Positions 2,582 through 56,778 of a stretch of DNA of 56,778 nucleotides are shown in pieces. This stretch comes from a virus. A program made the translations under genes and the position numbers. The notes under the pieces are model-generated. The model made no database searches and was not told the origin of the DNA. It was given only the letters and a program-made list of their open reading frames with translations. The stretch is from positions 1 to 56,778 of IMG/VR virus record IMGVR_UViG_3300020027_000010. One strand, 5' to 3'. The first letter of the stretch is position 1. The number at the start of each line of letters is the position of its first letter.

Positions 2582-2847
2582 CCGACATGCAAAGGCTGGC
2601 CGCTTCGATCCCGCACGATTACCGCAAGAAAATTCTTTTGGAGTGGCTGCCTAACGTCCGGATCAGCTGGGACTGCAAGGAATTCAAACTGCTGTGGGAA
2701 GCTTACTTCGTGTACATCGAACCTGATGGCCTGAAGATCACCAATTGCCCGAAATGCATGAGTAACGTGATCAAAAACTGGAGAAACCTTTCACCACTCC
2801 TGGCTGCTGAAGAGCAGGAATATAATCTGTTAGAACATCTGTCATGA
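2578..2847 (+). CDS. Small hypothetical protein, tail module
   Basis: 89 residues with a Trp-rich central part (LEWLPNVRISWDCKEF, LLWEAYF) and a CPKC pair near residue 60 (ITNCPKCMSNVIKNW) that could be half of a metal site, although no second Cys pair is present. Overlaps both neighbours by 4 bases. Coupled with the preceding 66-residue gene and the following gp10-like gene. Function unknown. Confidence 0.6.
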   Translation: MTDMQRLAASIPHDYRKKILLEWLPNVRISWDCKEFKLLWEAYFVYIEPDGLKITNCPKCMSNVIKNWRNLSPLLAAEEQEYNLLEHLS

Positions 2848-3347
2848 TTGGAACAGCCACGATACGATCGGTTGAAACTGAATTCACAAAGAACCTGAAA
2901 AAGGAACTGAGGGACCAGGGCCATTATCTCACGGGCGCGCTGGAATCGTCCATCAGAACCAAAACAACGGACAACACCGGTGCAGTGGTTGGCGAAGTCA
3001 CTGCCCTGGACTACATCGATGACCTGGAGACTGGCATCGCAGCATCTCACATCGATCCCAATGATGTATCCTACATCAGAGAGATGGCAGAATATGCCAA
3101 GAAGAGATTTGGGCTCACCAGCGAGAGGCAGGCATTAAAGGCAGGGGTGGCCATCGCTCGAAAGCATGCCCGTGAAGGCATGCCTACCCGAAATTCCTAC
3201 AACTTCAGTTCCACCGGTGAGCGCACTGAAGCCATTCAAACCAGTTATGATGAGCATGCGGACCAATATGATGACCTTATTGAAAATGGCCTTAACCGAG
3301 AGCTGGATACGTACATCGAAAAACAATTCAAAGAAACCCTATTTTAA
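2844..3347 (+). CDS. HK97 gp10-like / neck or tail-completion protein (tentative)
   Basis: 167 residues. The segment GHYLTGALESSIRTKTT around residues 27-43 resembles the 'TGxLxxSI' signature of HK97-gp10-type proteins, which help finish the tail end or connect tail to head. The rest is helical and charged, with no membrane segments. Its stop overlaps the next start by one base. In usual siphoviruses this family lies between head connectors and tail tube; here it sits beside hub-like tail genes, in line with the rearranged order of this genome. The assignment rests on a short motif and context. Confidence 0.45.
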   Translation: MIGTATIRSVETEFTKNLKKELRDQGHYLTGALESSIRTKTTDNTGAVVGEVTALDYIDDLETGIAASHIDPNDVSYIREMAEYAKKRFGLTSERQALKAGVAIARKHAREGMPTRNSYNFSSTGERTEAIQTSYDEHADQYDDLIENGLNRELDTYIEKQFKETLF

Positions 3348-5269
3348 TGCCAGTATCCTCGATTTCCTACCAACCCAATACCGCTCAGCTGCTTGCAGCT
3401 TACCGCCCGATCCGCTTTAAGGTCCTGGCCACTGCCACTGGCGAAGATCCCATTCCACCATTCGTTTCTTGTGACGTGTACATCGAAGATGTGTATTATA
3501 AGTCCCTGATCAGGACTGCCCCCGAAAGCTTTACCGTCGATGACAGTGTCTTCACTTTTGACATTGCCGACGTACTTCAGGAATATATGCAGCCCGATAT
3601 CGCAGCGATCGACAACCGCGATGTTCTGCCCGCACCTCACATGAGCGCAAAGGTGTATTGTAAGTTTCGGGCATCGGGACTGAACGTTGATGGCTTCACC
3701 GTGGAGGAACCAACCAAACCCATCCAGGCAACAAAGTTCACCCCTGCTGTCGCTGGTACCGGAACTACGTCCAACACTTTCTTTGCAATAAATTCAGTTC
3801 TTCAGCAGGAGGATAATCAAAATCTGGCATCTCACCTCAATGCATACAAGCAGGGAGGCTGGGACAGTAATGCTTACCCGCTCTCACATCGCAACCGATA
3901 TTTCATCTGTCCTGGCGACAGCGATCACTACCCGGTCATCTATCGCGGCGACTGCCTGTCTGCAGACCTGGTGCTCAATTACAAATTGAAGGGCTCCAAT
4001 GTCTTCCAAACTGCCACTGCCGAGGACTATAATGCTTGTGAACCGATCGGCTTTAGTACACCGGCGGTGAACGGCAAGGAAGTGACGATCACCCTTGACG
4101 ATCCCGTTCCTGCCGGCCATAAGATCCTGGTGCGTTATAAAAAACAGGTCGACATCAATGCCTACTGGATCGAAGCTGCATATACGACGCAAACAATTGT
4201 CTTCAGGATTCCCCTGGGTGTTCGTTTCATATTCTTCGGTGACTACACCCTTGAAGTCATTCACTTTTGCAGCGATTGCAATCATGCCGATGCGGTGACA
4301 GACGAATTCACGATCGGCAACACGCCGGCAGACCGGGAATGGAGAGGTGTCAATCCATACTGTCTTCAGCAAACTTTCGAAGACCCCATATACATCACGC
4401 TGGAACTTCGAAACCAGGAGAGTGACACAACATACTTTCCCAACCAGTCGACTCCTTATGTGAAAAATGTGTTCACCACAGCTGACCTGTATGCGAAGTT
4501 CTTCAGCGATGCTTCACATCTTAGCCCACTGGATTTCACTCAAGCTGACCTGACCATCTATCTCAAAAAGCACGAACAAAGGATCGACAACAATTCAGGA
4601 GGCACGTACGGCAGGGAAATCGAAAACATTCAGGGGTTCACGGTGGATGCAGATGGTGTCGAGGTGTTACTTGGCCAGGTGACAACCAGGTCAGAGAATT
4701 ACCAATACAACAGCTATCCCACTGTCGCGTCCTCTTCTGATGGCACTTTCACCTTCACGCCTTACCCAACTCATATACTCACTGGTGGAAACACCGGGCA
4801 ACGGGGATTCACGGACCTCCAGGAATTTAACGTCGAGACAAATGGTCCGATTCCAGGAACCACCAAACCCAATGATCCGGAGGATGATGATTACATCGCA
4901 CCGGCTGGGAGCGCTCAGTGTCCTGCAGGACCAAATCAGACGACAACGACCTATGGATATGGTTTGCAGATAGCAAAAGTTGAATATGGATACAGTGGAC
5001 AATTTGTGTATCCGGAGACTGTAAGTAATACTGGTGGCGGTGGATACACCTATGTCTTGCCTCTTCCGAAATCAACAAACATCACCCTGGCCGTGAAGGC
5101 AAAGACCCTTGATGCCGGCAATACGTCTGGTTTTGTGAAGGTGCGCGTGACTTATGTAAACAGCGCTGGCCTTAGCCAAACCCAGGTCTACAACATTCCA
5201 AATAATATCGAAACCGGGATACCTGGAACCTTTCAGAACATAAGCAATGTCAACATAAGCAATTACTAA
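3347..5269 (+). CDS. Large tail structural protein
   Basis: 640 residues, beta-rich, with no signal peptide or membrane segment. The N-terminus (LLAAYRPIRFKVLAT, CDVYIEDVYYKSL, FDIADVLQEYMQ) matches a pattern I associate with virion proteins of Bacteroidota phages placed next to tail hub genes. Several Cys residues (CSDC near 320) could bind metal or form disulphides. The C-terminal part has Ig-like strand patterns. The gene is in a tight run with 5271 and 5843 and upstream of the tape measure, so a baseplate or distal-tail role is likely; the exact function is not established. Confidence 0.65.
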   Translation: MPVSSISYQPNTAQLLAAYRPIRFKVLATATGEDPIPPFVSCDVYIEDVYYKSLIRTAPESFTVDDSVFTFDIADVLQEYMQPDIAAIDNRDVLPAPHMSAKVYCKFRASGLNVDGFTVEEPTKPIQATKFTPAVAGTGTTSNTFFAINSVLQQEDNQNLASHLNAYKQGGWDSNAYPLSHRNRYFICPGDSDHYPVIYRGDCLSADLVLNYKLKGSNVFQTATAEDYNACEPIGFSTPAVNGKEVTITLDDPVPAGHKILVRYKKQVDINAYWIEAAYTTQTIVFRIPLGVRFIFFGDYTLEVIHFCSDCNHADAVTDEFTIGNTPADREWRGVNPYCLQQTFEDPIYITLELRNQESDTTYFPNQSTPYVKNVFTTADLYAKFFSDASHLSPLDFTQADLTIYLKKHEQRIDNNSGGTYGREIENIQGFTVDADGVEVLLGQVTTRSENYQYNSYPTVASSSDGTFTFTPYPTHILTGGNTGQRGFTDLQEFNVETNGPIPGTTKPNDPEDDDYIAPAGSAQCPAGPNQTTTTYGYGLQIAKVEYGYSGQFVYPETVSNTGGGGYTYVLPLPKSTNITLAVKAKTLDAGNTSGFVKVRVTYVNSAGLSQTQVYNIPNNIETGIPGTFQNISNVNISNY

Positions 5270-5270
5270 C

Positions 5271-5843
5271 ATGATCACGTTCCACATACCAGCAGGCCCG
5301 ATGAATCTGGCAACACTCTTTCCAGGGATTGATTTCACCAGAGTGGAAGAATATTATCTGGAGCTAAAGGACCAAGAAGATGACAGCGTGATCCTTACGA
5401 CGCCTTCTTTCAAAAAAGGTTGCTGCTGTAATGAAGACCAGATCCGGATATTCTTTGTCAACTACCTGGGAGGTATTGATGCTGTCAATTTTAAGATCAT
5501 CGCTGAGGAAACAGGTGTCGTAAGTGACAACTGGAAACGGCCACTGAAAGCACCCATGGAAAAGTGGGACGGTGGCATTCAGCGATTCAATGTGACCAGC
5601 AATGAAACCATCACGGCAGAAAATACCTGCTATCAGGAAGAGGATAATCCCTGGCTTAAAGAACTCCTGGGTTCTCCCAATGCCTGGGTTCAGTGGCTGG
5701 GCACTCAGGGCCAGGATGATGACTATATACCGATCGTCATTCGGGATGGCAACTTCCTGACCCGAAAGAATGAGGAACGATACAACAATGTTCTGCAGAT
5801 ACAATTTGTCTATGCGAACGAAAACCTCATCCTGCGTAACTAA
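5271..5843 (+). CDS. Tail/baseplate-associated protein
   Basis: 190 residues, starting one base after the previous stop, and its stop shares a base with the next ATG (TAATG), so the three tail genes are coupled. It contains an unusual Cys triplet (KKGCCCNED near residue 48) and Trp-rich acidic stretches (EDNPWLKELLG, AWVQWLGTQGQDDD). No domain recognised. Its place between the 640- and 776-residue proteins before the tape measure suggests a distal tail or adaptor role. Confidence 0.6.
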   Translation: MITFHIPAGPMNLATLFPGIDFTRVEEYYLELKDQEDDSVILTTPSFKKGCCCNEDQIRIFFVNYLGGIDAVNFKIIAEETGVVSDNWKRPLKAPMEKWDGGIQRFNVTSNETITAENTCYQEEDNPWLKELLGSPNAWVQWLGTQGQDDDYIPIVIRDGNFLTRKNEERYNNVLQIQFVYANENLILRN

Positions 5844-8173
5844 TGCCAAGACCCAACTACATATCGCTGATCATCGACGGACAGAAGGCAGATCTGGATC
5901 CTGCCGGCCAGGTCCCCACTGTGAGTTATGCTACCGAGGACGAGGAAGACTTTGAAGTGAAGAAATCCGCTGACAGCTTCAATATTGAGCTTCCTGGAAC
6001 GCTGATCAATGATCAGATCCACAACACCAGGCACAATGCTTCGGTAGTTGACAATTCTATCAGCAGCGCTTTCGATGGTTTCCGGCCTTGTACATACATC
6101 GCCAACGGGATGGAAATTCTGATCGGGAAGTATCTCACGCAATCCGTAGTCAAACAGAATGGCCGGCCGGTGAAATACCGCGGGAAGATCTATGGCCTGA
6201 ATGGCGACTGGGTAATTGACCTGAAAGAAAAAACGCTTTTCGATTTCGTGAATCCACGTAAGCACCCATTCACGGTGCAAACCATCATCGGATCCTGGAG
6301 CTATGATGGCCGTAGTGAAGCAAAGGATTACGTTTATGCACCGGTCAGGTACCTGAACCCATTTGGGGATGTCCCAGAACCGACCGAAGAAGATCCTGAG
6401 CCCAGAGCTGATGATCGCAATGTCACACTCAATGACTTGAAGCCTGCAATCAGTCCGTACTGGATCCTTTACCGTGGATTTAAAAGCGCTGGATACAGGA
6501 TAGTTTCCAACTTCATGGATACTGATTTTTACCGGCGCGGGGTGATGCCATGGACCTGGGGAGGATTCGATTACGTCGATGACACCCGATGGGAACCGTT
6601 GAAATTCCTGGCATCTGGGAAAGAGGTCCGATTGGAAGGTGATCATAATGACACTTTCATCGACAATGAAATGGTAGCTGATGGATCGATCGAGGGCACC
6701 TATGACAACAATGGGTTATTCTCTTATACCGATGCGGGATCTGTCCTGCCCTATATGTCCATCTTCAGGTATCCAACAACACCGGCGGAACTCAACCTGG
6801 GTAAGATTCACATTAGTTTATCCATCACCGTGAATTATGATTACAAGATTGTTCAGGACAACAGTGATGCGAACCTGGGAGTGTTCTGGTACAAGAACGG
6901 CGCGCTGATTTATACAGACATGATCTTCGGCATGAATGGCAGTGGCGCCATCAATCCAGCAGTAGGCTCAGGATCTCATGAAAGTTTCTACGAGGATGAT
7001 ATCAACCCTGGTGACTATATCGGCGTAAGGGTCAGGATCCGCACCTTCCAGTCCACTTTCGGTTTTGCGCGAGTCACTGCCGGCGTCGAGTCCTTTACGC
7101 TCAATTATGTGAAGCTGACCGACGGCGCTGATGTGGCCATGATCAATTATCCGAAATTCAAAAAATACAACTGGCTGGATCTGCTGCGTGGAGAAATCGA
7201 TCTATTCGACCTGCAGATCAACACAGATCCCATTCGAAAGGAAGTCTACATCGAGCCAACCCATGCCTATCAAATCAATGGCCAACCTGGTACCGGCTTC
7301 TACAACCGGCAGCAGTTGGACTGGACCATGAAGCAGGATCTCAGCAAGGAAACTGAACTGGAGCTCTACAGTGATCACGAGCGGGAGTTCACTTTCAAAT
7401 TCAAGGATGATACGAATGACGGCGGTCTCAAAAAAGTGCAGGACCGTAACCAAATCACTATAGGTCAGGCAAAGTTTGTTCTTCCCGACAGATTCAAAAC
7501 TGACAAAAAACAAAAGGAGAACCGGTTTTATTCTCCGCTCATGCATTACACCCATGAGGAATTTAAAAGCATCACCGGACTATCTCCGCAGTTGATCGCT
7601 CTGATCCCTGAAAATATTTCCAACACATCCGGATCTGAATCTGAGAACACGTACGAGCCAAAGCGAGCCTGGTATAAAGGAAATATTTCCGGCGTTGGTG
7701 GATGGAAATTTGACGGCATTGAAAGAACGACGCTACCCTTCATGTTCGCTGTTAATTACAAGCCGGGTGGGGAGAATGATCCGGTGCTGTCATACTCTGA
7801 CCAGCTGGTCGGTGGTATCGTCGCAAAGGGACTGCTAAAGAAGTTCTTTCTCCAGCGGATGGCGATCCTAAGACACGGGCGCCGGTACAACCCAGCATAT
7901 TTCATGCTCAACAACAATGACGTGGCCAACTTTCTTCACCGGGAATCCATTGTCGTTGATGACATCGAGTACATCCTGACCTCGATCAAAGATTTCAATC
8001 CTGTGGAGCCGGAAAGCACCGCATGTGTGATGTGGATGTTCTCTCCAGTCACGGTGAAGGACGGCGAAAACACCTACCCATCTCTACAGAGCATTCAGAC
8101 CGGAATATCCACCAGCTCGCTGGACATCAAGTATTGGGCACAACTTCTATTAACCACCGACATACCCAAATAA
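5843..8173 (+). CDS. Tail hub / baseplate protein
   Basis: 776 residues. The N-terminal half (YISLIIDGQKADL, FNIELPGTL, YRGKIYGLNGDW) looks like a beta-barrel hub domain; the middle (DYVYAPVRYLNPF, PYWILYRGFKSAGY) is of a type found in large tail proteins of Bacteroidota phages; a jelly-roll-like insert covers about residues 270-430. No catalytic motif or signal peptide was found. Its TAA overlaps the tape-measure ATG. In other siphoviruses the hub follows the tape measure; here it precedes it. The hub assignment is inferred from size and context. Confidence 0.6.
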   Translation: MPRPNYISLIIDGQKADLDPAGQVPTVSYATEDEEDFEVKKSADSFNIELPGTLINDQIHNTRHNASVVDNSISSAFDGFRPCTYIANGMEILIGKYLTQSVVKQNGRPVKYRGKIYGLNGDWVIDLKEKTLFDFVNPRKHPFTVQTIIGSWSYDGRSEAKDYVYAPVRYLNPFGDVPEPTEEDPEPRADDRNVTLNDLKPAISPYWILYRGFKSAGYRIVSNFMDTDFYRRGVMPWTWGGFDYVDDTRWEPLKFLASGKEVRLEGDHNDTFIDNEMVADGSIEGTYDNNGLFSYTDAGSVLPYMSIFRYPTTPAELNLGKIHISLSITVNYDYKIVQDNSDANLGVFWYKNGALIYTDMIFGMNGSGAINPAVGSGSHESFYEDDINPGDYIGVRVRIRTFQSTFGFARVTAGVESFTLNYVKLTDGADVAMINYPKFKKYNWLDLLRGEIDLFDLQINTDPIRKEVYIEPTHAYQINGQPGTGFYNRQQLDWTMKQDLSKETELELYSDHEREFTFKFKDDTNDGGLKKVQDRNQITIGQAKFVLPDRFKTDKKQKENRFYSPLMHYTHEEFKSITGLSPQLIALIPENISNTSGSESENTYEPKRAWYKGNISGVGGWKFDGIERTTLPFMFAVNYKPGGENDPVLSYSDQLVGGIVAKGLLKKFFLQRMAILRHGRRYNPAYFMLNNNDVANFLHRESIVVDDIEYILTSIKDFNPVEPESTACVMWMFSPVTVKDGENTYPSLQSIQTGISTSSLDIKYWAQLLLTTDIPK

Positions 8174-11100
8174 TGGCAGTTTCAAAAGTTTTCCGCATAG
8201 AGCTCAATGGATCCTCGGCCGTGAACAAGGATTTCCAAACCATCAAAAAGTCGGTAACGGAGATGGGTAAGGTGATCAAGAGTGCCAAAGAAGAGCTCGC
8301 CCTTCTGCTTAATACAAAAGGTGACACCAGCCAGATCGCTGATCTCAGCCGGAAGCTGGAGCAGCTGAATAAATCCTATGAGGCCTTAAAGAAACAGAGG
8401 GAAACTGCAAAGACAAATGCCAGGGACCAGGCAGCCGCGGAGAAATTATTGGCTGAGATGATTGTCAAGGAAGCACAGGCGAACAAACTAAAGGCGCAGG
8501 CAGATGAGGCAAGAACACGGTCGACCATTGCGCAAAATAAAGAACTCGATCGTCAGATCTCCCTGGAACAAAAGCAGACCGCAGCTTTGCAAAAACAACT
8601 GACAGTTGCAAGTGCTCTTCCAGGTTCATACAATGCTATTCGCGCCTCCCTCGCCCAGCTTCGTCCATTCATTCAATCTGGCGGCATCGGCGGTACTGTT
8701 GCATTCAATGGACAAAATATCAACTTCGATCAAGCCATTGCAGAATTCAAACAGCTGTCTGCAGCTGAGCAGGATTTCAGAAGACAGTTTGCAAGGGACG
8801 GGCTGCTTGTTGGCGAATACACAACCGGAATCGTCCAGGCCTTCAAGTCCATGAACATTGATGATATCATCAAAAACCAGGTGGCCGGCGCAAAGAACCA
8901 GTTAGGTCAACTGGAAGCAAAAACCAATGAGCTGGTTGTTGCCTACCGCCAGGCACAGGCCTCCGGATCTGTTGATCTCAATAAGCTTGAAAAGGAAATT
9001 CATGATAATGTCACTGAAACATTGCGCCTTAAACAGGCGACCCAAGCTGCAGAAGTCCAGCTGAAAGGGATTGGCGGAGTAGGATCGCAAATCACGGCGA
9101 GCATTAGCAAAGGATTCAAGGATTTGAGAGGAAGCATTGCACAGTTTGCACTGAGCTATATCGGCTTTCAGGGTATACTGACTTTAACCCAAAAGACATT
9201 TGCCGATACCATTTCCCTGGATTCCCAGGATGCTGCCCTCAAACTTGTTTCCAGAACGACAAGTGAACTGGCAATTAACCAGCAATTCCTTTCATCCACT
9301 ACCGAAAACCTCGGACTGGAAACGCTATCGGCGACCAAAGCGTTCAAAGGATTCTATGCCGCCTCCACTCAAGCTGGTATCAGTGCCGATGAAACAAGAG
9401 AAATCTTTTTTGCAGCAGCGAGCGCGGGCGCCAACCTGAAGTTGAGTGCGGAGGACATGAACGGCGTCCTTCTTGCCTTCTCACAGGTGGCATCTAAAGG
9501 AAAGGTGCAGGCGGAAGAGCTCCGCGGACAGATTGGTGAGCGTATTCCTGGTGCATTTTCCATCGCGGCACGAGCGATCGGTGTGACAGAACAGCAACTG
9601 AACAAAATGCTGGAAAGTGGAGAGGTAATTTCCAAGGATTTCTTACCCAAGTTTGCAAAAGAACTGCAGAACACCTTCGGATCGGATACGACGACGCACA
9701 TTGATGGTTTGCAGGCCAGCGTTAATCGTCTCAAGAACCAATTCACTCAATTGCTTAAGGACAATCAGGAAGGACTGACTTCTTTTTTCACCTTTTTGGT
9801 GCAGGCTGCAGGCCTTTTGGTAAAATATTTCCCTGCACTCATCAGTCTTCTCGGATTATATGCTGCAGGATGGGCCCTGGCGAACAAAGCCATGATCATA
9901 GCGCGTGCCGAACTCGTTTTTCAAAGACTTGTGATGCCGATACTCACTGTTTTACTCGGTGGCCAGGCCAATGCCATGAGGGTTTATGCTATTGCTACGG
10001 AACTCGCTGGTAAATCGCTGGCATTTTTCTCCAGACTCCTTGGAAATCCGATTTTTAAAGTATTTGCAGCTACCCTCGGCATTTCACTCATTGCCATGAA
10101 GGCCTTCAGTAAGGATGTGGGTGCAGCGAGTGAAAAATTGGGTCAAGCGGCGCAAAAGCAACGGTTTCTGGCAGAAGCACTGGCTGAAGCGAATAAGGGT
10201 TTGAGCGAAGCCCGCGCCAAAGAAATGGCTTTGCTGGCGGTGATTCGTGACAGGACGCTTGCAGATCAGACTCGACAGAAAGCCCTCAATGAATTAAAAA
10301 CATTGATGGGCCAGTATGGAGAAGCCCTCACGTTAGAGAACGTCCTGACCGGTCAGGGAACTGAAGCAATCAAAAAGTACAACGCTGAACTGGAAAAACG
10401 TGGCCGCATAACCGCATCTCAGGCAATTGCATCGCGTGAAAACTCGAAGCTGTCTGTCCTCTTTCAGAATCAGAGCGACGTGGAAAATGCAATTAAGGGT
10501 GGCACATCGATAAATACCAGTCAACTTTCTGAAGATGTAATGGAGGCCTACTACAAGGCCACAGGAAGAAAGGCCAGTGAAATCGGTAAATTCTTGGCTG
10601 ACAAAGTTGGGATCGACTTCACCTATTCCGGCAAGGATCTGAAGCAATTCTCCGATGTGATCAAAGCTCGGATCAAGAGTCAATTAACGAAGACGGCCGC
10701 GGCTGAACAGGCTAAACTTGAAAACGATGGTCCAAAAACTGAGACTGCAGCTCCTGGTACCGGTGAGGGCACAACAACCCTCGAGCAGCTGAAGAATGAA
10801 TACCAAAAAACAGTCGAAGAGATTAAGCAGCTTGATCTTATCAAAAAGAAAACGGATCAACAAGTCACACTTCTCAAAGCACTGCGCAAAAAAAGGAATG
10901 AACTCAAAACTCAGATCACAGAGCTGGGTGGATCTGTTACCAATGCCAATAACAGAGGATCTCGCCTCACCGGTGAGCAGAAGGACGACTTCAAAGATAT
11001 CGATGCTATCCGGGACAAGTTGTTGGCTGAACAGAAAGGCAACTTCCTTGATTTGGAGATCGATGAAAAACAATATCTGCAGAAAGTTTTAAAGATCAAC

Positions 11101-12765
11101 ACTGACGCCATTAACCAGAAGTTAAAGCTGATCAAGGGAAAGAATGCCGAGGAAAGAAAGATAATAGCAGAACTCAATCTCCAGAAGATCACCGATCAGC
11201 AGGAAACAAACAGGAAATTGTTCGAGCTGGAAAGTCAGCGTATCGAAAACGGTTTGAAGAATGCCGTGGCCCCACAGCGTAACCTGGTCACCTCAATAGA
11301 TAATGATCCCTCACTTTCAGAGACTGAAAAATTCAAAGCAAAGCAGGCTGTGTACGATAACCTGCTACTGATGCAGATCGATTTTAACAGGCGCCAGGCT
11401 GGACTGGAAAAGCAATACGGCATCAAGTCTGTAGAAAATGAGCAAAAGCGTCAGGATGCATTGGAGGAAATCGTGAAGCAAGGAACCCAGAACGATCTTA
11501 CTGGTCCGGCTGCCCGCCTAAAGGACATCGAGACCGAAGGTGAAATTGCCGTCGCTAAGATCAAACAGGACGTTGCAGCAAAAGTAACTGCCATTCTCTC
11601 CTCGTCGGAATCGTCGGCTAAAAAGGCCCGGGCCCTGGAAGTACTCCAGCGCGAGGAAACCAAGCGGCTGATGGCCGCTGAGCTCAACACCCTGCGTGAA
11701 AATGTAAGTGAGTCCAAAAAACTGCTGGATCAGAAGCTAATCAGCGAGAAAGATTACCAGATCAAGCTTGCGGACCTGAAGACCAAAGAGGCAGCATACA
11801 ATGAGCTGACCGCAAATTCTCAGGTATCATCTACAAGGAAATTCATCAATGCACTGCGAGACCTCAAAGATCAGCTGATCGAGAACGCGCTCGGGATCAA
11901 ACAATACACCCATGACACAGCCGGCCAGCAGCAGAAGACCGCTGATGCCATCCGGGAGACGTCGGAGAATATCGCCGACGCGATCCAGCAGGCCTACCAG
12001 GGATTCTTTGATCTGGAAAATCAGCGCATCGATCGGGAGAAGCAAAATCACCTTGACGCCCTGGACCGGACGAAAGAGCGCGTCCTGGCATTAGCCACCA
12101 GTGAAGCGGAAAAAGACACGATTGAACGCAAGTACGATAAGAAGCGCCGGGAGATCGAGAAGAAAGCTGCGGAGGATCGGAAGAAGAATGCCCTCAAACA
12201 GATCACCATCGATTTCATCGTGGCAGCCATCAAGACCTATGCAACCTATGGATGGCCATTGGGCCTCATAGCAGTCGCCGGCCTTGCCGCGGTATATGCG
12301 GTGCAGCGATCGATCATTAACAAACAACAGTTTGCCAAAGGAGGTATCGTTCGGCCGAATGGAAAAGTGAATAATCCGCCGAATAGATCGACACTGCCCA
12401 ATGGCGACAATATCGATGCGACGCTAAGACGTGGTGAAGTCGTGCTCAATGAAGAACAGCAAAGAAAAATCGGCGGACCAGCGGTATTTAAAAAGATTGG
12501 TGTACCAGGTTTTGCAGAAGGAGGAGCGGTGACAGCGCCACAGTTGGGTACGAGTCTGCGGGCTCCGGTCTTCGCGCCATCATCTCAATCATTTAACGGA
12601 TCGGCGTCGCAATCTCAGCAGGATATGACCGAACTGAAAGCACTGGTGGCCCAGGTAGCGGGCGTCGTTCTCGCCTCAGATCAGAAGGAAGTTATTCTCA
12701 ATCCCAATAAAGTAACCAAAGCTCAGGCCCGTACCAGAAAAGATGTGGGGCTCGCTTCAATATGA
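8173..12765 (+). CDS. Tail tape measure protein
   Basis: 1530 residues from the ATG that overlaps the previous stop; an upstream in-frame start exists but lies inside the hub gene. Long coiled coil at residues 20-160, then a tape-measure N-terminal-type domain (about 390-530, with the pattern KAFKGFYAASTQAG...RGQIGERIPGAF), a hydrophobic stretch at about 540-640, long charged helices to about 1350, and a C-terminal Gly-rich part (FAKGGIVRPNGKVNN) common in tape measures. Such proteins set tail length and help DNA pass the cell envelope. The length predicts a long, non-contractile tail of roughly 200 nm or more. The last bases overlap the next gene by 4. Confidence 0.93.
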   Translation: MAVSKVFRIELNGSSAVNKDFQTIKKSVTEMGKVIKSAKEELALLLNTKGDTSQIADLSRKLEQLNKSYEALKKQRETAKTNARDQAAAEKLLAEMIVKEAQANKLKAQADEARTRSTIAQNKELDRQISLEQKQTAALQKQLTVASALPGSYNAIRASLAQLRPFIQSGGIGGTVAFNGQNINFDQAIAEFKQLSAAEQDFRRQFARDGLLVGEYTTGIVQAFKSMNIDDIIKNQVAGAKNQLGQLEAKTNELVVAYRQAQASGSVDLNKLEKEIHDNVTETLRLKQATQAAEVQLKGIGGVGSQITASISKGFKDLRGSIAQFALSYIGFQGILTLTQKTFADTISLDSQDAALKLVSRTTSELAINQQFLSSTTENLGLETLSATKAFKGFYAASTQAGISADETREIFFAAASAGANLKLSAEDMNGVLLAFSQVASKGKVQAEELRGQIGERIPGAFSIAARAIGVTEQQLNKMLESGEVISKDFLPKFAKELQNTFGSDTTTHIDGLQASVNRLKNQFTQLLKDNQEGLTSFFTFLVQAAGLLVKYFPALISLLGLYAAGWALANKAMIIARAELVFQRLVMPILTVLLGGQANAMRVYAIATELAGKSLAFFSRLLGNPIFKVFAATLGISLIAMKAFSKDVGAASEKLGQAAQKQRFLAEALAEANKGLSEARAKEMALLAVIRDRTLADQTRQKALNELKTLMGQYGEALTLENVLTGQGTEAIKKYNAELEKRGRITASQAIASRENSKLSVLFQNQSDVENAIKGGTSINTSQLSEDVMEAYYKATGRKASEIGKFLADKVGIDFTYSGKDLKQFSDVIKARIKSQLTKTAAAEQAKLENDGPKTETAAPGTGEGTTTLEQLKNEYQKTVEEIKQLDLIKKKTDQQVTLLKALRKKRNELKTQITELGGSVTNANNRGSRLTGEQKDDFKDIDAIRDKLLAEQKGNFLDLEIDEKQYLQKVLKINTDAINQKLKLIKGKNAEERKIIAELNLQKITDQQETNRKLFELESQRIENGLKNAVAPQRNLVTSIDNDPSLSETEKFKAKQAVYDNLLLMQIDFNRRQAGLEKQYGIKSVENEQKRQDALEEIVKQGTQNDLTGPAARLKDIETEGEIAVAKIKQDVAAKVTAILSSSESSAKKARALEVLQREETKRLMAAELNTLRENVSESKKLLDQKLISEKDYQIKLADLKTKEAAYNELTANSQVSSTRKFINALRDLKDQLIENALGIKQYTHDTAGQQQKTADAIRETSENIADAIQQAYQGFFDLENQRIDREKQNHLDALDRTKERVLALATSEAEKDTIERKYDKKRREIEKKAAEDRKKNALKQITIDFIVAAIKTYATYGWPLGLIAVAGLAAVYAVQRSIINKQQFAKGGIVRPNGKVNNPPNRSTLPNGDNIDATLRRGEVVLNEEQQRKIGGPAVFKKIGVPGFAEGGAVTAPQLGTSLRAPVFAPSSQSFNGSASQSQQDMTELKALVAQVAGVVLASDQKEVILNPNKVTKAQARTRKDVGLASI

Positions 12766-25529: not shown

Positions 25530-26042
25530 ATGGAACAACAAATGAAAAAAAAACGCAGAATCCTGATTCTTGAAGATGATGGGGAAGATCGTGAACTGAT
25601 GAAAATAGCCTTGGAAAAAGCTGAGTATAAAGACATGGAAGACTTCTGTTTTTATGCCGAAAGCAAGGCCCTACTCGAAGCCATTGACGAGAATTCCGAA
25701 ACATTAGTTTTAGATAACATGCTTTCTGAAGGTGGTAAAACGGGCCTCGATGTGCTTAAAGAAATAAAAAGTACCCATCCGTTCAGGTTGTTCTATCCGA
25801 TTATTATAAGCGGTCATATCACAGCAACAGAGAGCATCCAGTACCAAAAGAATGGAGCGAAAGATATTATTGAAAAAGACCGCGAAGGCACGTACCTGGA
25901 ATTAATAGAGTCGATTAAAGAAGGAGAAACTTATATCCGAAGTGAAAAAGAGAAAGCTCAGATAATCCAAAACCTTGAAGATTGGGCCAACGACCTACCG
26001 GATAGGATTAAAATACTCAAGAATGACAAACGAGCAGATTGA
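25530..26042 (+). CDS. Stand-alone response-regulator receiver (CheY-like) protein
   Basis: 170 residues. Receiver features: acidic pair Asp16-Asp17 in ILILEDDGED, phospho-acceptor Asp62 in LVLDNML, switch Ser94 in IIISGH and Lys116 in GAKDIIEKD, in the right order and spacing. After residue 125 only a helical tail follows, with no DNA-binding domain. Starts 4 bases after the esterase and overlaps the next gene by 20 bases, so it is part of the late lysis operon. No histidine kinase gene is visible in the window. It could hijack a host phosphorelay; this is inference. Confidence 0.85.
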   Translation: MEQQMKKKRRILILEDDGEDRELMKIALEKAEYKDMEDFCFYAESKALLEAIDENSETLVLDNMLSEGGKTGLDVLKEIKSTHPFRLFYPIIISGHITATESIQYQKNGAKDIIEKDREGTYLELIESIKEGETYIRSEKEKAQIIQNLEDWANDLPDRIKILKNDKRAD

Positions 26043-49551: not shown

Positions 49552-51033
49552 ATGACTCAGCCACTCTACCTGGATGCCGAGAAGGCAGCTGCAGAGAGAT
49601 GCAAGCGGGAAGGTGGACTCGCATTTTTCGTAAAAGAGTTTTGGGATATCATAGTTCCTAACCCATTGGTGTGGAACTGGCACATGCAGGTTCTCTGCGA
49701 TGAGATCCAGGAGTGCGATGAGCGGGTCTTCAAGAGATTACCCAAATTCCACGACCTGGTGGTGAATGTGCCTCCTGGTACCTCGAAGACAAAAATCCTT
49801 TCCATCTTATCAACGGCATGGGAATTCGCCCGCATGCCTGGCATCAAGGTATTCGTAGGATCTTATTCCGACAGTGCTGTGTCAGGGATAGCTGACGAGA
49901 TCCGGATGGTAATGAAATCGCCTAAGTATCAACTGTGGTTTCCTCACACCCGGATCCGGAAGGACAAAGATTCGCTGCACAACTTCAGGACCACGGCCAA
50001 TGGAGAATTCTATGCATTCACCGTGGGAGGTACACTTACCTCCAAGCATGCTGATATCCTGAAGATCGATGATCCGCTCAACCCTAAGGAAGCAGCATCA
50101 GAAGCATTACTGGAGTCTACAAATCACTTCTTCAGTAAGACACTGCCCACACGTAAGGTCGATAAGAAGGTCACACCCATCTACCTGATCATGCAACGCC
50201 TGGCTGTCAATGATCCCAGTGGAGTGATGCTGGAAAAGAAAGGCAAGGGTGTCAGGCACATCTGTTTACCAGGTGAGCTTTCCAAACATGTGAGCCCTGC
50301 TGAATATGCTTTGAACTACACCAATGGTCTGCTGGATCATCTCAGGCTCGATACCAAGGACCTCGCAGAATTAAAAATAGATCTGGGCCCTGATGGCTAC
50401 GCCGGCCAGATCATGCAGACACCGGTTCCTGAAGGCGGTCTCATCTGGAAGGACACTTACTTCACCATCGTTCCAGATTATGACTTTCCGGATCCCAAGT
50501 GGGCAGGCGTCGAGGCCTATGGAACAGACTGGGATACTGCTTACACAAAGGACGAGGTGAATGCAGCCTCAGCATTCATCACCTCATTCAGGTACCGGCG
50601 TAAGATCTACCTGGACCAGTTTGATTTCCGTTGGCTGGAATTCCCTGAGATGATCAACTGGATGAAACTACAGGTTGCCCCGCATTACATTGAGAAAAAA
50701 GCATCAGGGAAATCAGCGAAGCAGACACTTACCCGCTATGGCGTGATAGCCATTGAGGTACCAGTGCCAGGTGGCGCTGATAAGATCGCCCGCGCAAAGA
50801 TGGCCACACCTGTCGGAGCTGCCGGCATGCTGTGCATCAGAAGATCTATCGCTGAACGGTTCATGAATGATTCCCGGCAAGGCGTTTTATTCTTTCCCAA
50901 AGGAATGTATGCCGACGTGGCCGACGTCTTGGCTCAGGTTGTTGCCAGGCATAAAGGCGGAGGTACCAGGGTTATGGGTTCCGAGTCTGAGCAGGAGGAT
51001 GCTTTTGATCCGCTGGAGGAGTTGGACTTTTGA
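49552..51033 (+). CDS. terL: Large terminase subunit
   Basis: 493 residues. ATPase: PPGTSKT at 74-80 with a Ser where Walker A often has Gly, Walker B ILKIDD near 169-174. Nuclease: GTDWDTAY near 323 supplies the first acid, with later acids. It powers DNA packaging and cuts the concatemer. The minus-strand moron ends only 3 bases after its stop. Confidence 0.93.
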   Translation: MTQPLYLDAEKAAAERCKREGGLAFFVKEFWDIIVPNPLVWNWHMQVLCDEIQECDERVFKRLPKFHDLVVNVPPGTSKTKILSILSTAWEFARMPGIKVFVGSYSDSAVSGIADEIRMVMKSPKYQLWFPHTRIRKDKDSLHNFRTTANGEFYAFTVGGTLTSKHADILKIDDPLNPKEAASEALLESTNHFFSKTLPTRKVDKKVTPIYLIMQRLAVNDPSGVMLEKKGKGVRHICLPGELSKHVSPAEYALNYTNGLLDHLRLDTKDLAELKIDLGPDGYAGQIMQTPVPEGGLIWKDTYFTIVPDYDFPDPKWAGVEAYGTDWDTAYTKDEVNAASAFITSFRYRRKIYLDQFDFRWLEFPEMINWMKLQVAPHYIEKKASGKSAKQTLTRYGVIAIEVPVPGGADKIARAKMATPVGAAGMLCIRRSIAERFMNDSRQGVLFFPKGMYADVADVLAQVVARHKGGGTRVMGSESEQEDAFDPLEELDF

Positions 51034-51890: not shown

Positions 51891-52673
51891 ATGCGCTACA
51901 AACAGGTCACTGAAATCCTCCTTCAGGCGAAAGACGCTATATATAAACTTCTCGATCACCCCGACGATACGCATCACCGACTCAAAATCATCACCAACCT
52001 GCAAAGAGATGCCACCTACCTGTCTCTGATCACCGGCATCGGCGATGTCGAGCAGTCACCCCGGGAAGCACCTGGCCCGGCCACGACCATTGGAGGCGAA
52101 CCGATCACCAGGACCACCAAGGTCACTCCGGATGACCTGGAACCATCCAGAGAACGTGTGGAGGTGCTGCGCAGAAAGGTGGAAGAGGCCTACCGTGACT
52201 TCCCATACCTCGAGGATAAGCGCATCATGAAAGAATATGAGGACACCGTGATCCGCGGAGTGGCAAAGAAAGCGAAGATGAAGGTGACCAGGGAACAGCC
52301 AGAGATCATTACCATTTCATTCATTGGTGAAATCAAGAAAAACATCGAGCTGATGGAAAAGGATAATATCGAAAGACAACAGCAGCGGGTCAGGGATCTA
52401 CAGCATCCTGACGTACCAAATTTGAAAATCTCTCCAGGTGCTCTCATGGCACCGCCAGAACCGGGGGCAACCGAAATCGGTCCCGATGGCAGGACATACC
52501 GAGTTGGCGATGATGGGACCAGGACGCCGATCACCGAAGAAATTACCGGTGACGACTCAGGTGAAGCGTTACCCGCAGAAACGGAAATAAAGTCCAACCC
52601 GGACGCTCCTGCCAAAGCCGACAAGTCTCTCGAAATTAAAACACCGGGCTCCAGGAAAAGAGACCCCAAGTGA
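51891..52673 (+). CDS. Hypothetical tail-region protein
   Basis: 260 residues. Helical N-terminal half (YKQVTEILLQAKDAIYKLL, RRKVEEAYRDFPYLEDKRIM) and a Pro/acid-rich C-terminal half. Overlaps the next gene by 4 bases. It starts the post-terminase run and may be a tail-assembly or connector protein, but no domain was recognised. Confidence 0.55.
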   Translation: MRYKQVTEILLQAKDAIYKLLDHPDDTHHRLKIITNLQRDATYLSLITGIGDVEQSPREAPGPATTIGGEPITRTTKVTPDDLEPSRERVEVLRRKVEEAYRDFPYLEDKRIMKEYEDTVIRGVAKKAKMKVTREQPEIITISFIGEIKKNIELMEKDNIERQQQRVRDLQHPDVPNLKISPGALMAPPEPGATEIGPDGRTYRVGDDGTRTPITEEITGDDSGEALPAETEIKSNPDAPAKADKSLEIKTPGSRKRDPK

Positions 52674-53365
52674 TCTCTATCACCATTGAAGGGAAGGCCT
52701 ACCAGCTTCCCGCATCCATAATGGATATCACACTGCAGGACCGGATCGATTTCGATCAGAAGTATGGAATGAAACTCAGAGGCCAGCTTAAAAAGATCAT
52801 TGAAATGCGCGATGGTGTTGACCGTGAAATGGAATTCACCTCATACCACTTCGAACTGGCCACCAAAACACTTTCCTTTTTTGGAAAGGTTCCCCTGGAT
52901 GTGGTGGAGAATACCAACATCACCGATGTCCTGAGCATGTACCACACTTCTGTGCGCATGATCACTGATGAGATTGATTTCAGTGACAAGGAATTCAAGC
53001 TCCAGCTGGAATTCAAATGGGAGGGCGACACCTGGTGGATTGCGCCTCCTGTATTAAAACAGGACAGCGCTATGAGCTTCGGAGAATTCATCCAGGCAAA
53101 GCAGGTTGTGAAGAACATGTACAAACTGGGAGATCAGAAATACGCTTCCCTGCTGCCTCTGGCCTGCGTGTATTTCAGGAAGAAAGGGGAAGAGTTCAGT
53201 GATGAATTGCTTGTAGAAGATGGACCACGGCAGCAGCTGCTGAAAAGTCTGCCGCTCCAATATGCTTTGCATGTTGGTTTTTTTTTGAACAGTTGTCTTC
53301 ATTCCTGGCTATTAACATACCGCTCTTCCATCCCGGAGGTGACGGAAAAAGCGAGCCAGAATTAA
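52670..53365 (+). CDS. Tail assembly chaperone (G-like), frameshift donor
   Basis: 231 residues, no signal peptide. It contains a DITLQDRIDFDQKYG start and helical C-terminal part. Size and the slippery run TTTTTTTTT at 53278-53286, 80 bases before its stop, fit the G protein of a G/GT pair. GT pairs guide the tape measure during tail assembly. Frame of the extension is -1. A 9-T run is also a sequencing-error risk. Confidence 0.7.
   Translation: MISITIEGKAYQLPASIMDITLQDRIDFDQKYGMKLRGQLKKIIEMRDGVDREMEFTSYHFELATKTLSFFGKVPLDVVENTNITDVLSMYHTSVRMITDEIDFSDKEFKLQLEFKWEGDTWWIAPPVLKQDSAMSFGEFIQAKQVVKNMYKLGDQKYASLLPLACVYFRKKGEEFSDELLVEDGPRQQLLKSLPLQYALHVGFFLNSCLHSWLLTYRSSIPEVTEKASQN
53278..53287 (+). 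promoter_or_regulatory. Programmed -1 frameshift site (T TTT TTT)
   Basis: Zero frame reads GGT TTT TTT TTG; nine T residues at 53278-53286 form a canonical X-XXY-YYZ heptamer. After a -1 slip the ribosome reads TTT GAA CAG TTG and goes on for about 90 codons to 53565. Confidence 0.75.
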
Positions 53366-53565
53366 AGAGGCATTTCGATCAGTGGGAGTGGGTAAATGCC
53401 TTATACTTCATTGCTGAGAGCAAGGTATTCGACAGATCCAATGGAAAGACAAGTATCGATAATGCGAAGTGCGCAAAGTTGTTTGAGGTCCTGATATATG
53501 CGAGCGAAAAGAAATCCTTTGAAAGAGCGGAAGCATCCGTTTACAAACGAAAAACAAAAGCATGA
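53284..53565 (+). CDS. Tail assembly chaperone T-like extension (-1 frame)
   Basis: About 93 residues reached by the -1 slip, from TTT at 53284. The first 80 residues have no Met (start-like TTG at 53293 only), so independent translation is unlikely. The result is a fused protein of about 298 residues, similar in ratio to lambda gpG/gpGT. Overlaps the next ATG by 4 bases. Confidence 0.75.
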   Translation, partial: FEQLSSFLAINIPLFHPGGDGKSEPELKRHFDQWEWVNALYFIAESKVFDRSNGKTSIDNAKCAKLFEVLIYASEKKSFERAEASVYKRKTKA

Positions 53566-54136
53566 CAGAATTATCGATATACGGCAAGAACGGCTTCTTT
53601 CACAACATCGTGAAGGCCTCCGCCATCATAAAGGGGAATTATGCCGTCCTCGAGAAGGGTGCTCATGATCTCAACATGAATAACCTGCTGAGCAACCTCG
53701 AACTTCCCAAGGAAAAATACCCAGGCGTGTTCTGTTTGCCACCGGTCAGCGAGGTGCCCGGATCCACCGCTCAATGGGAAACCTTCAACTTCAGAATACT
53801 GTTCCTATGCACCACATATTCTACAGGCGACAATAAAACAAAGCTTCCCGATCGCAACACCAACAGCTCCTTAGCCAAGATAGTTGGTGACTGGAATGCC
53901 ATGAAGAATGTCGGACTGGCATTCATGCATGCGGTGGAAAAAAGGAAGCTGGAGGGTTTCAGACTTGTGCAAGGCACGCCGTGGAGAATTCCCAGAATCA
54001 GCATTGCTCAGAATGATAACGTCTCAGGAGTCATGCTGATGTTCAGTGCCCAGTTGTTTTCTCCTTGCGATTATTCCGATATCGATCTACCTGCGATCGC
54101 TAATCCTTTCGTTAACGAACAACCGACTTATCACTG

Positions 54137-54137
<1 letters not shown>
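53562..54137 (+). CDS. Tail-associated hypothetical protein
   Basis: 191 residues. Mixed strands and helices ([50 protein letters not shown]). It follows the frameshifted chaperone, where a tail terminator or tube-associated protein might be placed. The shared base with the collagen-like gene at 54137 shows coupling. Not identified. Confidence 0.5.
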
Positions 54138-55348
<1,211 letters not shown>

Positions 55349-55373
55349 AAACAACCTTAAAAACGCTTAACAA

Positions 55374-56480
55374 ATGGCACTCACTCAGTTTTTTAAACTC
55401 GACAACGGCAACGTGAAAATTGTCTCTCCTGGAGGTGGAACAAGATATGTTCCCGGGCAGGCATTCATCAGTCACAATGGTGCCGGTAGTGGCGTTAATG
55501 TAAAGTTCAGCCGGCCTGAATTTGATTTCAGTATCCCTGCCGGTGATTCTATTTCCGTTGACGGAGGCGAAAGCGTCTCAGAAACTGAAGAGATAGCGGA
55601 GGTACTCTCAACCGATCTTTTTTTTTTAGCTGAAGGGGGTGGCCCCGCAAGCGATCCAATCTACTTTTCCGAATCCTTTACAGGCGAAGGAACAGAGGGT
55701 GATCCGATTGACTTTGATTCAGCTACCCTTCAGGCAGCAGTTTCGGCAAACACAGATGTTGCTACATTAAAAACTATTGTCGGATCTGGAATCAGTGATG
55801 GCGATTCGGTGGTAGACACGCTGTCAGAGATGTTGTCGGTTTTTTCGACGTATTCTGAAGGAGTTGACATCGCCACTCAATTAGCAGGTAAAGCCGCTGC
55901 TTCTCATACTCATGCCACCTCAGACATTACCGGCTTCAATGCCGCTGCTTTGGCTGCTGCTCCTGCTGAGACAACGACTACAATTGGATCGGTAACCAAT
56001 GGAGCAGCGGCGAAGACTACTCCGGTTGACGCTGATTCAATGGGACTGATAGATTCTGCGGCTAGCAATATTTGGAAGAAAGTAACCTGGGCGAATGTTA
56101 AGGCGACGCTTAAAACGTATTTCGATTCGCTTACAACCACATTCACAAATAAGAGGATCACCCAAAGGATAGGGACTACGGCCTCTAGTGCTACTCCGAC
56201 TCCGGACGGTGATGCAAACGATCAGTATAATGTAACGGCACTCGCGGCAACGGCAACGTTCGGAGCGCCAACAGGAACGCCAACAGACGGGCAATCGCTG
56301 ATAATTCGAATCAAGGACAACGGAACGGCCAGGGCAATATCCTTCAACGCGATCTATCGGGCTTCAACGGATTTCGCTTTGCCGACAACAACAGTATTGA
56401 GTAAAACCATGTATCTGCAATTCGTTTACAACGCTGCTGATACAAAGTGGGATTGTGTGGGCTATACAAACGGATTCTGA
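55374..56480 (+). CDS. Tail fibre protein
   Basis: 368 residues. N-terminal domain with strands (FKLDNGNVKIVSPGG), an acidic Ser/Asp-rich middle, then HTHATSDITGF near 177-187, a motif repeated in many tail fibres, and Ala/Thr-rich strands to the end. The 10-T tract at 55618-55627 is in frame (ctt ttt ttt tta). Overlaps the next gene by one base. Confidence 0.7.
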   Translation: MALTQFFKLDNGNVKIVSPGGGTRYVPGQAFISHNGAGSGVNVKFSRPEFDFSIPAGDSISVDGGESVSETEEIAEVLSTDLFFLAEGGGPASDPIYFSESFTGEGTEGDPIDFDSATLQAAVSANTDVATLKTIVGSGISDGDSVVDTLSEMLSVFSTYSEGVDIATQLAGKAAASHTHATSDITGFNAAALAAAPAETTTTIGSVTNGAAAKTTPVDADSMGLIDSAASNIWKKVTWANVKATLKTYFDSLTTTFTNKRITQRIGTTASSATPTPDGDANDQYNVTALAATATFGAPTGTPTDGQSLIIRIKDNGTARAISFNAIYRASTDFALPTTTVLSKTMYLQFVYNAADTKWDCVGYTNGF

Positions 56481-56778
56481 TGGGAATAAGAATGTTAATG
56501 AACGGTTTTAAAAGGGCTGGGGTATCCCCGGTTCTTGCTGACGGTAACACTGTCGGGTGGTACAAAGCTGATGATCTGGCTACAATAACCAAAGACGGAT
56601 CTAACAAGGTATCTCAGTGGAATGACTTCTTAGGATCAGGTAGAAATCTAACCGCAGGCAATCCGGATTTCACTCCTACGTGGAGCGCAACAGGGATATC
56701 GTTTGACGGAGCGTACAATTATATGGCGGCGACATTCACCCTTGTTCAGCCAGAGTTTGTGTATATGGTGGCGAGCAT
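56480..56778 (+). CDS. N-terminal half of jelly-roll (LamG-like) tail protein, truncated by window end
   Basis: 99 complete codons from the ATG that shares a base with the preceding fibre stop. GWYKADDLATITKDGSNKV and WNDFLGSGRNL, then ATGISFDGAYNYMA, are the typical start of Bacteroidota-phage jelly-roll domains. The C-terminal half appears at 3-392. If the genome is circular the join needs a base number of 2 modulo 3 to restore frame. Confidence 0.7.
   Translation, partial: MGIRMLMNGFKRAGVSPVLADGNTVGWYKADDLATITKDGSNKVSQWNDFLGSGRNLTAGNPDFTPTWSATGISFDGAYNYMAATFTLVQPEFVYMVAS

What the first reader, a model, noticed from the sequence alone, without database searches (positions are those of the whole stretch)
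53278..53565. Programmed -1 frameshift joining a G/GT-like tail chaperone pair
Seen: T TTT TTT in the correct frame phase 80 bases before the stop of 52670-53365; the -1 frame is open for 93 codons and has no Met in its first 80 residues, so it can be made only by slippage or an unusual start. Known: tail assembly chaperones of most siphoviruses (lambda G/GT) use such slips. Inference: this is the equivalent pair, although it is unusually far (over 10 kb by the circle) from its tape measure.
Basis: partly seen in the sequence, partly recalled or inferred. Interest (0 to 1): 0.72.

Follow-up and report, generated by a model that had tools for sequence, protein, structure and literature searches.

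The report
Conserved nine-T frame switch, tail chaperone
A gene in a virus of Bacteroidota bacteria makes a short and a long form of one protein, probably a helper for building the virus tail, by slipping on a run of exactly nine T's; related viruses keep that run without exception unless they have fused the two halves, so it is a built-in switch and not a sequencing error.

Summary
In detail: T9 at 53278-53286 puts T TTT TTT in phase in ORF 52670-53365, and the -1 frame is open for 93 codons with no ATG. It is not an assembly error. IMG/VR scans gave 29 relatives (window included) below 85% nucleotide identity plus five more, all with exactly G(G/C)-T9 and a homologous -1 extension. In two relatives (L069, L088) the run is gone and the halves are one in-frame ORF. 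Cultured Nonlabens phages P12024S/L carry a diverged version, also with T9. The family matches nothing in Pfam, PHROGs, NCBIfam or PDB. A tail-assembly-chaperone (G/GT-like) role is the best reading, from architecture, synteny and weak fold matches, but without sequence homology. The gene lies 6-9 kb upstream of the tape measure throughout the family, not next to it. What slips is open. Invariant T1 and T9, no shared stimulatory RNA structure and avoidance of A/T runs of nine or more elsewhere in these genomes favour RNA-polymerase slippage slightly over lambda-type ribosomal -1 frameshifting; neither is shown. This is a new family and probably a new variant of a known kind.

The parts
52670..53365 (+). 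Zero-frame ORF (GTG start, 231 aa): short product. N domain of about 205 aa (N-terminal beta hairpin, then mostly helical), then a poorly conserved tail after the slip site
   Evidence: homologues at 30-50% identity; AlphaFold2 mean pLDDT 86.9
53278..53286 (+). Slip site: run of exactly nine T's; in-phase heptamers T TTT TTT (53278) and T TTT TTG (53281)
   Evidence: T9 in all 29 representatives below 85% nt identity and five further homologues
53284..53565 (+). -1 frame extension (93 codons, no ATG) giving the long product of about 298 aa
   Evidence: homologous extension in all T9 relatives; no conserved start codon
51891..52673 (+). Conserved helical protein of unknown function directly upstream
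   Evidence: Synteny; no PHROGs or Pfam match
53562..54137 (+). Conserved downstream structural protein; start overlaps the extension's stop
   Evidence: Synteny
49552..51033 (+). Terminase large subunit (48% to Cellulophaga phage phi18:1)
2578..2847 (+). Conserved small protein between slip gene and tape measure
2844..3347 (+). Conserved, possibly tail-completion-like protein between slip gene and tape measure
   Evidence: (weak, E 0.02)
3347..5269 (+). Conserved structural protein between slip gene and tape measure
5271..5843 (+). Conserved protein between slip gene and tape measure
5843..8173 (+). Strongly conserved large protein directly upstream of the tape measure
8023..12765 (+). Tape measure protein (true start probably near 8170)
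   Evidence: PHROGs E about 1e-45; synteny

Best explanation
The gene makes two proteins in a fixed ratio: a short form (zero frame) and, after a slip by one base on a run of nine T's, a long form with a 93-residue C-terminal domain. Shown by comparison: the frame change is programmed and conserved (about 0.97). Inferred: the pair is a tail assembly chaperone working like lambda gpG/gpGT, the N domain coating the tape measure and the rarer C domain recruiting tail tube protein (about 0.7). Inferred with less certainty: the slip is mainly RNA polymerase adding one U while transcribing T9 (about 0.5), rather than the ribosome slipping -1 on U UUU UUU or U UUU UUG (about 0.4) or both (about 0.1).
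For: Frame change: exactly T9 in all 29 representatives below 85% nt identity and five more; homologous extension in all of them, no conserved internal start; two relatives without the run encode one in-frame ORF with the same domain order; a diverged version with T9 in cultured phages P12024S/L. T9 as a unit: T1 is a free third position of Gly/Ala (log10 P = -13.7 from codon usage if unselected), T4 is the third base of a Phe codon (-7.2), and T9 is the silent base of the -1 frame Phe codon (same figure), all assuming independence; one heptamer does not explain T1 and T9 together. No shared RNA structure up- or downstream (mean z near 0). A/T runs of 9 or more in other genes of these phages: 12 against 36.7 expected with protein and codon usage kept, while runs of exactly 6, 7 and 8 are at 1.00, 0.93 and 0.82 of expected. 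Baranov 2005 (PMC1088944) finds nine the threshold in many bacteria and reads a length-conserved 9T run in homologues as purposeful transcriptional slippage. Chaperone role: short/long architecture, conserved place in the tail module, BFVD fold matches including proteins named tail assembly chaperone (E 0.005 and 0.13).
Against: T9 always contains an in-phase -1 ribosomal heptamer, and tandem heptamers also explain all nine T's. The lambda precedent is ribosomal. Avoidance of long runs is seen mainly for A (T runs of 9 or more: 3 against about 4.9), and replication slippage could cause it. The P values ignore relatedness. Chaperone role: no sequence match to any named chaperone family, no PDB match, not adjacent to the tape measure, most fold matches are unnamed proteins, and the extension model is poor (pLDDT 66).
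Confidence: 0.5

Rival explanations
1. Ribosomal -1 frameshifting on T TTT TTT and/or T TTT TTG, as in lambda G/GT; T9 is kept because two overlapping slippery heptamers work together or because both frames constrain it.
For: Both heptamers are in phase; -1 ribosomal slips are the described mechanism for lambda-type pairs (PMC5009743); lambda-type sites need no strong RNA structure (own knowledge).
Against: One heptamer does not explain T1 and T9 together; no downstream structure; run length never varies; A/T runs of nine or more are avoided elsewhere.
Confidence: 0.4
2. The programmed frame change is real, but the protein is not a tail chaperone; it is another tail, neck or head morphogenesis protein with a minor extended form.
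For: 6-9 kb from the tape measure in all relatives, straight after terminase and one unknown gene; no chaperone family match; fold matches mostly unnamed.
Against: Size, helical N domain, short/long architecture and tail-module location fit a chaperone; some fold matches carry that name.
Confidence: 0.28
3. Sequencing or assembly error in a homopolymer: the true gene is one ORF with T10 or T7.
For: Nine-base runs are error-prone; the two in-frame homologues show that a fused protein is viable.
Against: Exactly T9 in many independently assembled contigs, including records whose IMG taxon ids look like isolate genomes and finished phages P12024S/L.
Confidence: 0.01
4. The extension is a separate gene started internally or by translational coupling.
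For: A TTG at 53293 could start a 90-aa ORF.
Against: Only 10 of 34 extensions have an ATG in the first 40 codons and no start is conserved; T9 would then have no reason to be invariant; two relatives fuse the domains.
Confidence: 0.02

Closest known systems
Phage lambda gpG/gpGT tail assembly chaperone pair
   Same: Short protein plus rarer C-terminally extended form made by a -1 frame change near the 3' end of a small tail-module gene
   Different: No sequence homology found; slip site T9 instead of a short heptamer; tape measure 6-9 kb downstream with several genes between, not next to it; mechanism unproven and possibly transcriptional
Transcriptional slippage genes on A/T runs of about nine (Shigella mxiE and spa13, Thermus dnaX, IS elements, Citrobacter tssM1)
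   Same: Length-conserved nine-base homopolymer giving two protein lengths
   Different: A phage tail-module gene; I found no report of this mechanism for tail chaperones in the library searched
Nonlabens (Persicivirga) phages P12024S/L gp38-gp39
   Same: Directly after terminase; T9; -1 frame domain related to this extension; gp38 is also a fold match to the N domain (rank 13)
   Different: Very diverged, 175-aa short form, T9 shifted by one base relative to the codons; gp39 annotated from an internal ATG
Cellulophaga phi18:1 gp56-gp57 and Croceibacter P2559S genes before the tape measure
   Same: Bacteroidota phages with short overlapping ORFs at a run of A9 (phi18:1) or A8 (P2559S)
   Different: No sequence match; in the classical place before the tape measure; the downstream ORF is in the +1/-2 frame, not -1

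Membership tests
Lambda G/GT-type tail assembly chaperones | Two overlapping ORFs joined by a conserved frame change near the end of the first | tested here: met
   T9 and homologous -1 extension in all but two fused relatives
Lambda G/GT-type tail assembly chaperones | Gene lies directly upstream of the tape measure gene | tested here: not met
   6-9 kb and several conserved genes away in all relatives examined
Lambda G/GT-type tail assembly chaperones | Sequence match to a described chaperone family | tested here: not met
   29 N-domain members against Pfam, PHROGs and NCBIfam, 26 extensions against PHROGs; none
Lambda G/GT-type tail assembly chaperones | Chaperone fold | tested here: inconclusive
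   BFVD hits named tail assembly chaperone at ranks 28 (E 0.005, probability 1.00) and 36 (E 0.13); better hits unnamed; no PDB hit
Lambda G/GT-type tail assembly chaperones | Both forms bind tape measure, C domain binds tail tube, neither in the virion | not testable with these tools
   Needs biochemistry and virion proteomics
Lambda G/GT-type tail assembly chaperones | Frame change made by the ribosome (-1) | tested here: inconclusive
   In-phase heptamers present but whole T9 invariant, no RNA structure
Transcriptional-slippage genes on 9A/9T | Run of nine with length conserved in homologues and conserved extension in the new frame | tested here: met
   criterion from PMC1088944
Transcriptional-slippage genes on 9A/9T | A/T runs of nine or more avoided elsewhere in these genomes | tested here: met
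   12 seen, 36.7 expected; significant for A runs, too few T runs to tell
Transcriptional-slippage genes on 9A/9T | mRNA with extra U's | not testable with these tools
   Needs RNA sequencing

The most novel reading that the evidence does not exclude
A widespread family of Bacteroidota phages sets the short/long ratio of its tail assembly chaperone by RNA polymerase slippage on an invariant T9 rather than by ribosomal frameshifting, so the ratio is written into the transcripts; other Bacteroidota phages (phi18:1 with A9, P2559S with A8) may have arrived at the same solution.
Probability: 0.45. Interest if true: 0.75.

Novelty: new variant of a known kind. Interest (0 to 1): 0.56.

Why it matters
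It identifies an unannotated protein family, probably a tail chaperone, in a group of Bacteroidota phages whose tail modules are almost unannotated, and gives a one-line signature (G[GC]-T9 in the gene pair after terminase) for finding it. Gene callers split or drop the second half, as in P12024S gp39. If the slip is transcriptional, it would be a second way of setting the chaperone ratio that tail assembly depends on, testable by sequencing mRNA from a lysogen or infected culture. The two natural in-frame fusions question whether the short form is always needed.

Tried and rejected
Single-protein scans of the extension, zero-frame ORF, fused protein and capsid protein in IMG/VR or genome contigs found no relative; tblastn of the fused protein in cultured phages found none. 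The terminase scans led only to phages with unrelated structural modules. A degenerate DNA pattern around LP..AL.VGFFF, partly guided by motifs recalled from memory, opened the family; it forced T8 and T9, so conservation was re-tested with scans that did not touch the site. Randomised protein rows as probes were generated and not used. Sequencing error and internal initiation were rejected. Stimulatory RNA structure was sought and not found. The structure of the extension could not be predicted well.

Full report
WHAT IS THERE. The window is an IMG/VR virus record of 56,778 bases with an integrase, a terminase 48% identical to Cellulophaga phage phi18:1 and a tape measure closest to Polaribacter and Leeuwenhoekiella phages; it is most likely a temperate phage of Bacteroidota. 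ORF 52670-53365 reads ...CAT GTT GGT TTT TTT TTG AAC... The T run is 53278-53286, nine long. The -1 frame opened by a slip runs to 53565, 93 codons, without ATG.

FINDING THE FAMILY. The proteins have no match in cultured phages, PHROGs or Pfam, and single-protein scans found nothing. A degenerate DNA pattern around the end of the N domain gave 22 homologues. Because that pattern forced T8 and T9, I rescanned with an alignment that ends before the site and with the extension alone. In the first, 31 of 32 loci have exactly nine T's preceded by GG or GC, with a homologous -1 extension. In the second, five new homologues (L095, L097, L101, L113, L116) also have T9. Counting only sequences below 85% nucleotide identity there are 29 representatives, all T9. 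L069 and L088 have no run: L069 reads GCG AGC TTC TTC GAG and encodes one ORF through both domains. So the two domains belong together, and Phe codons are free to be TTC once no slip is needed.

A DIVERGED CULTURED RELATIVE. The fold search matched Nonlabens phage P12024S gp38. That gene follows the terminase, contains T9 near its end, and its -1 frame encodes a domain with the same W.W motif. tblastn with the extension of L078 hits this place in P12024L, which supports it independently although weakly (E 0.3). Profile comparisons are also weak but in register (probability 20% and 39%, E 0.001 and 0.0003). Here T9 is shifted one base relative to the codons (CTT TTT TTT TAT).

SURROUNDINGS. The order terminase, 51891-homologue, slip gene, 53562-, 2578-, 2844-, 3347-, 5271-, 5843-homologue, tape measure is kept in the relatives. 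The slip gene is 6-9 kb upstream of the tape measure everywhere (one relative, L125, about 10.7 kb). In the window the distance is about 11 kb if the record's ends join, because fibre genes (54137 to 2362 across the ends) are inserted; the two closest relatives (L123, L124) lack the insertion, and their gene order supports joining the ends.

PROTEIN. The N domain model is good (pLDDT 87). It has no PDB relative but matches many unnamed phage proteins, and two named tail assembly chaperone at ranks 28 and 36. The extension is helical in a poor model. No member matches a family in Pfam, PHROGs or NCBIfam convincingly. The chaperone role is therefore inferred from architecture and context.

WHAT SLIPS. 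A T9 run always contains an in-phase heptamer, so phase does not discriminate. Four facts favour a requirement for nine T's as such. First, T1 (silent third position of Gly/Ala) and T9 (silent in the -1 frame Phe codon) are invariant, besides T4 and T7; codon usage alone makes this very unlikely (sequences are related, so the numbers overstate significance). Second, there is no shared RNA structure on either side. Third, runs of exactly 6, 7 or 8 A/T in other genes of these phages are at 1.00, 0.93 and 0.82 of expectation with protein and codon usage kept, but runs of nine or more are reduced to 12 against 36.7; this rests on A runs, as T runs are too few. Fourth, nine is the length at which selection against slippage appears in many bacteria, and Baranov et al. 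2005 (PMC1088944) state that a length-conserved 9A/9T run in homologues most likely serves transcriptional slippage. Measured slippage efficiencies of 15-55% (PMC4256274) would give more long form than lambda's roughly 30:1 (PMC5009743). Tandem ribosomal heptamers remain a full alternative. I put polymerase slippage at 0.5, the ribosome at 0.4 and both at 0.1.

VERDICT. As a phenomenon, frame-shifted chaperone pairs are well known. What is new is this family, its strict T9, its position away from the tape measure, the natural fusions, and the open possibility of polymerase slippage.

Noticed in passing
L015 30231-30942 (Cellulophaga phage phi18:1); L018 14349-15114 (Croceibacter phage P2559S): Short overlapping ORFs just before the tape measure meet at A9 (phi18:1) or A8 (P2559S), with the downstream ORF in the +1/-2 frame: candidate tail chaperones using homopolymer slips, both annotated as separate proteins.
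   Followed up: partly
L071 12456-13223 (same contig as L034): A second, diverged copy of the N domain without a slip site lies downstream of the normal T9 gene pair.
   Followed up: partly
L069 9977-10855; L088 2338-3273: In-frame fusions of the two domains with no T run; how, or whether, they make a short form is unknown.
   Followed up: partly
window 55618-55627 and 25545-25553: Two other long homopolymers inside predicted genes: T10 in ORF 55374-56480 and A9 just after the start of ORF 25530-26042. Such runs are otherwise rare in these phages.
   Followed up: no
window 54137-56778 and 1-2362: Collagen-like and beta-helix fibre genes inserted between two genes that are neighbours in the closest relatives; the gene order implies that the record's ends are adjacent.
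   Followed up: partly
window 8023-8173: The tape measure ORF as listed overlaps the previous gene by about 150 bases; relatives show little or no overlap, so its real start is probably near 8170.
   Followed up: partly
L085 564-731 (P12024S gp39): gp39 is annotated from an internal ATG of what looks like the -1 frame extension of gp38.
   Followed up: yes
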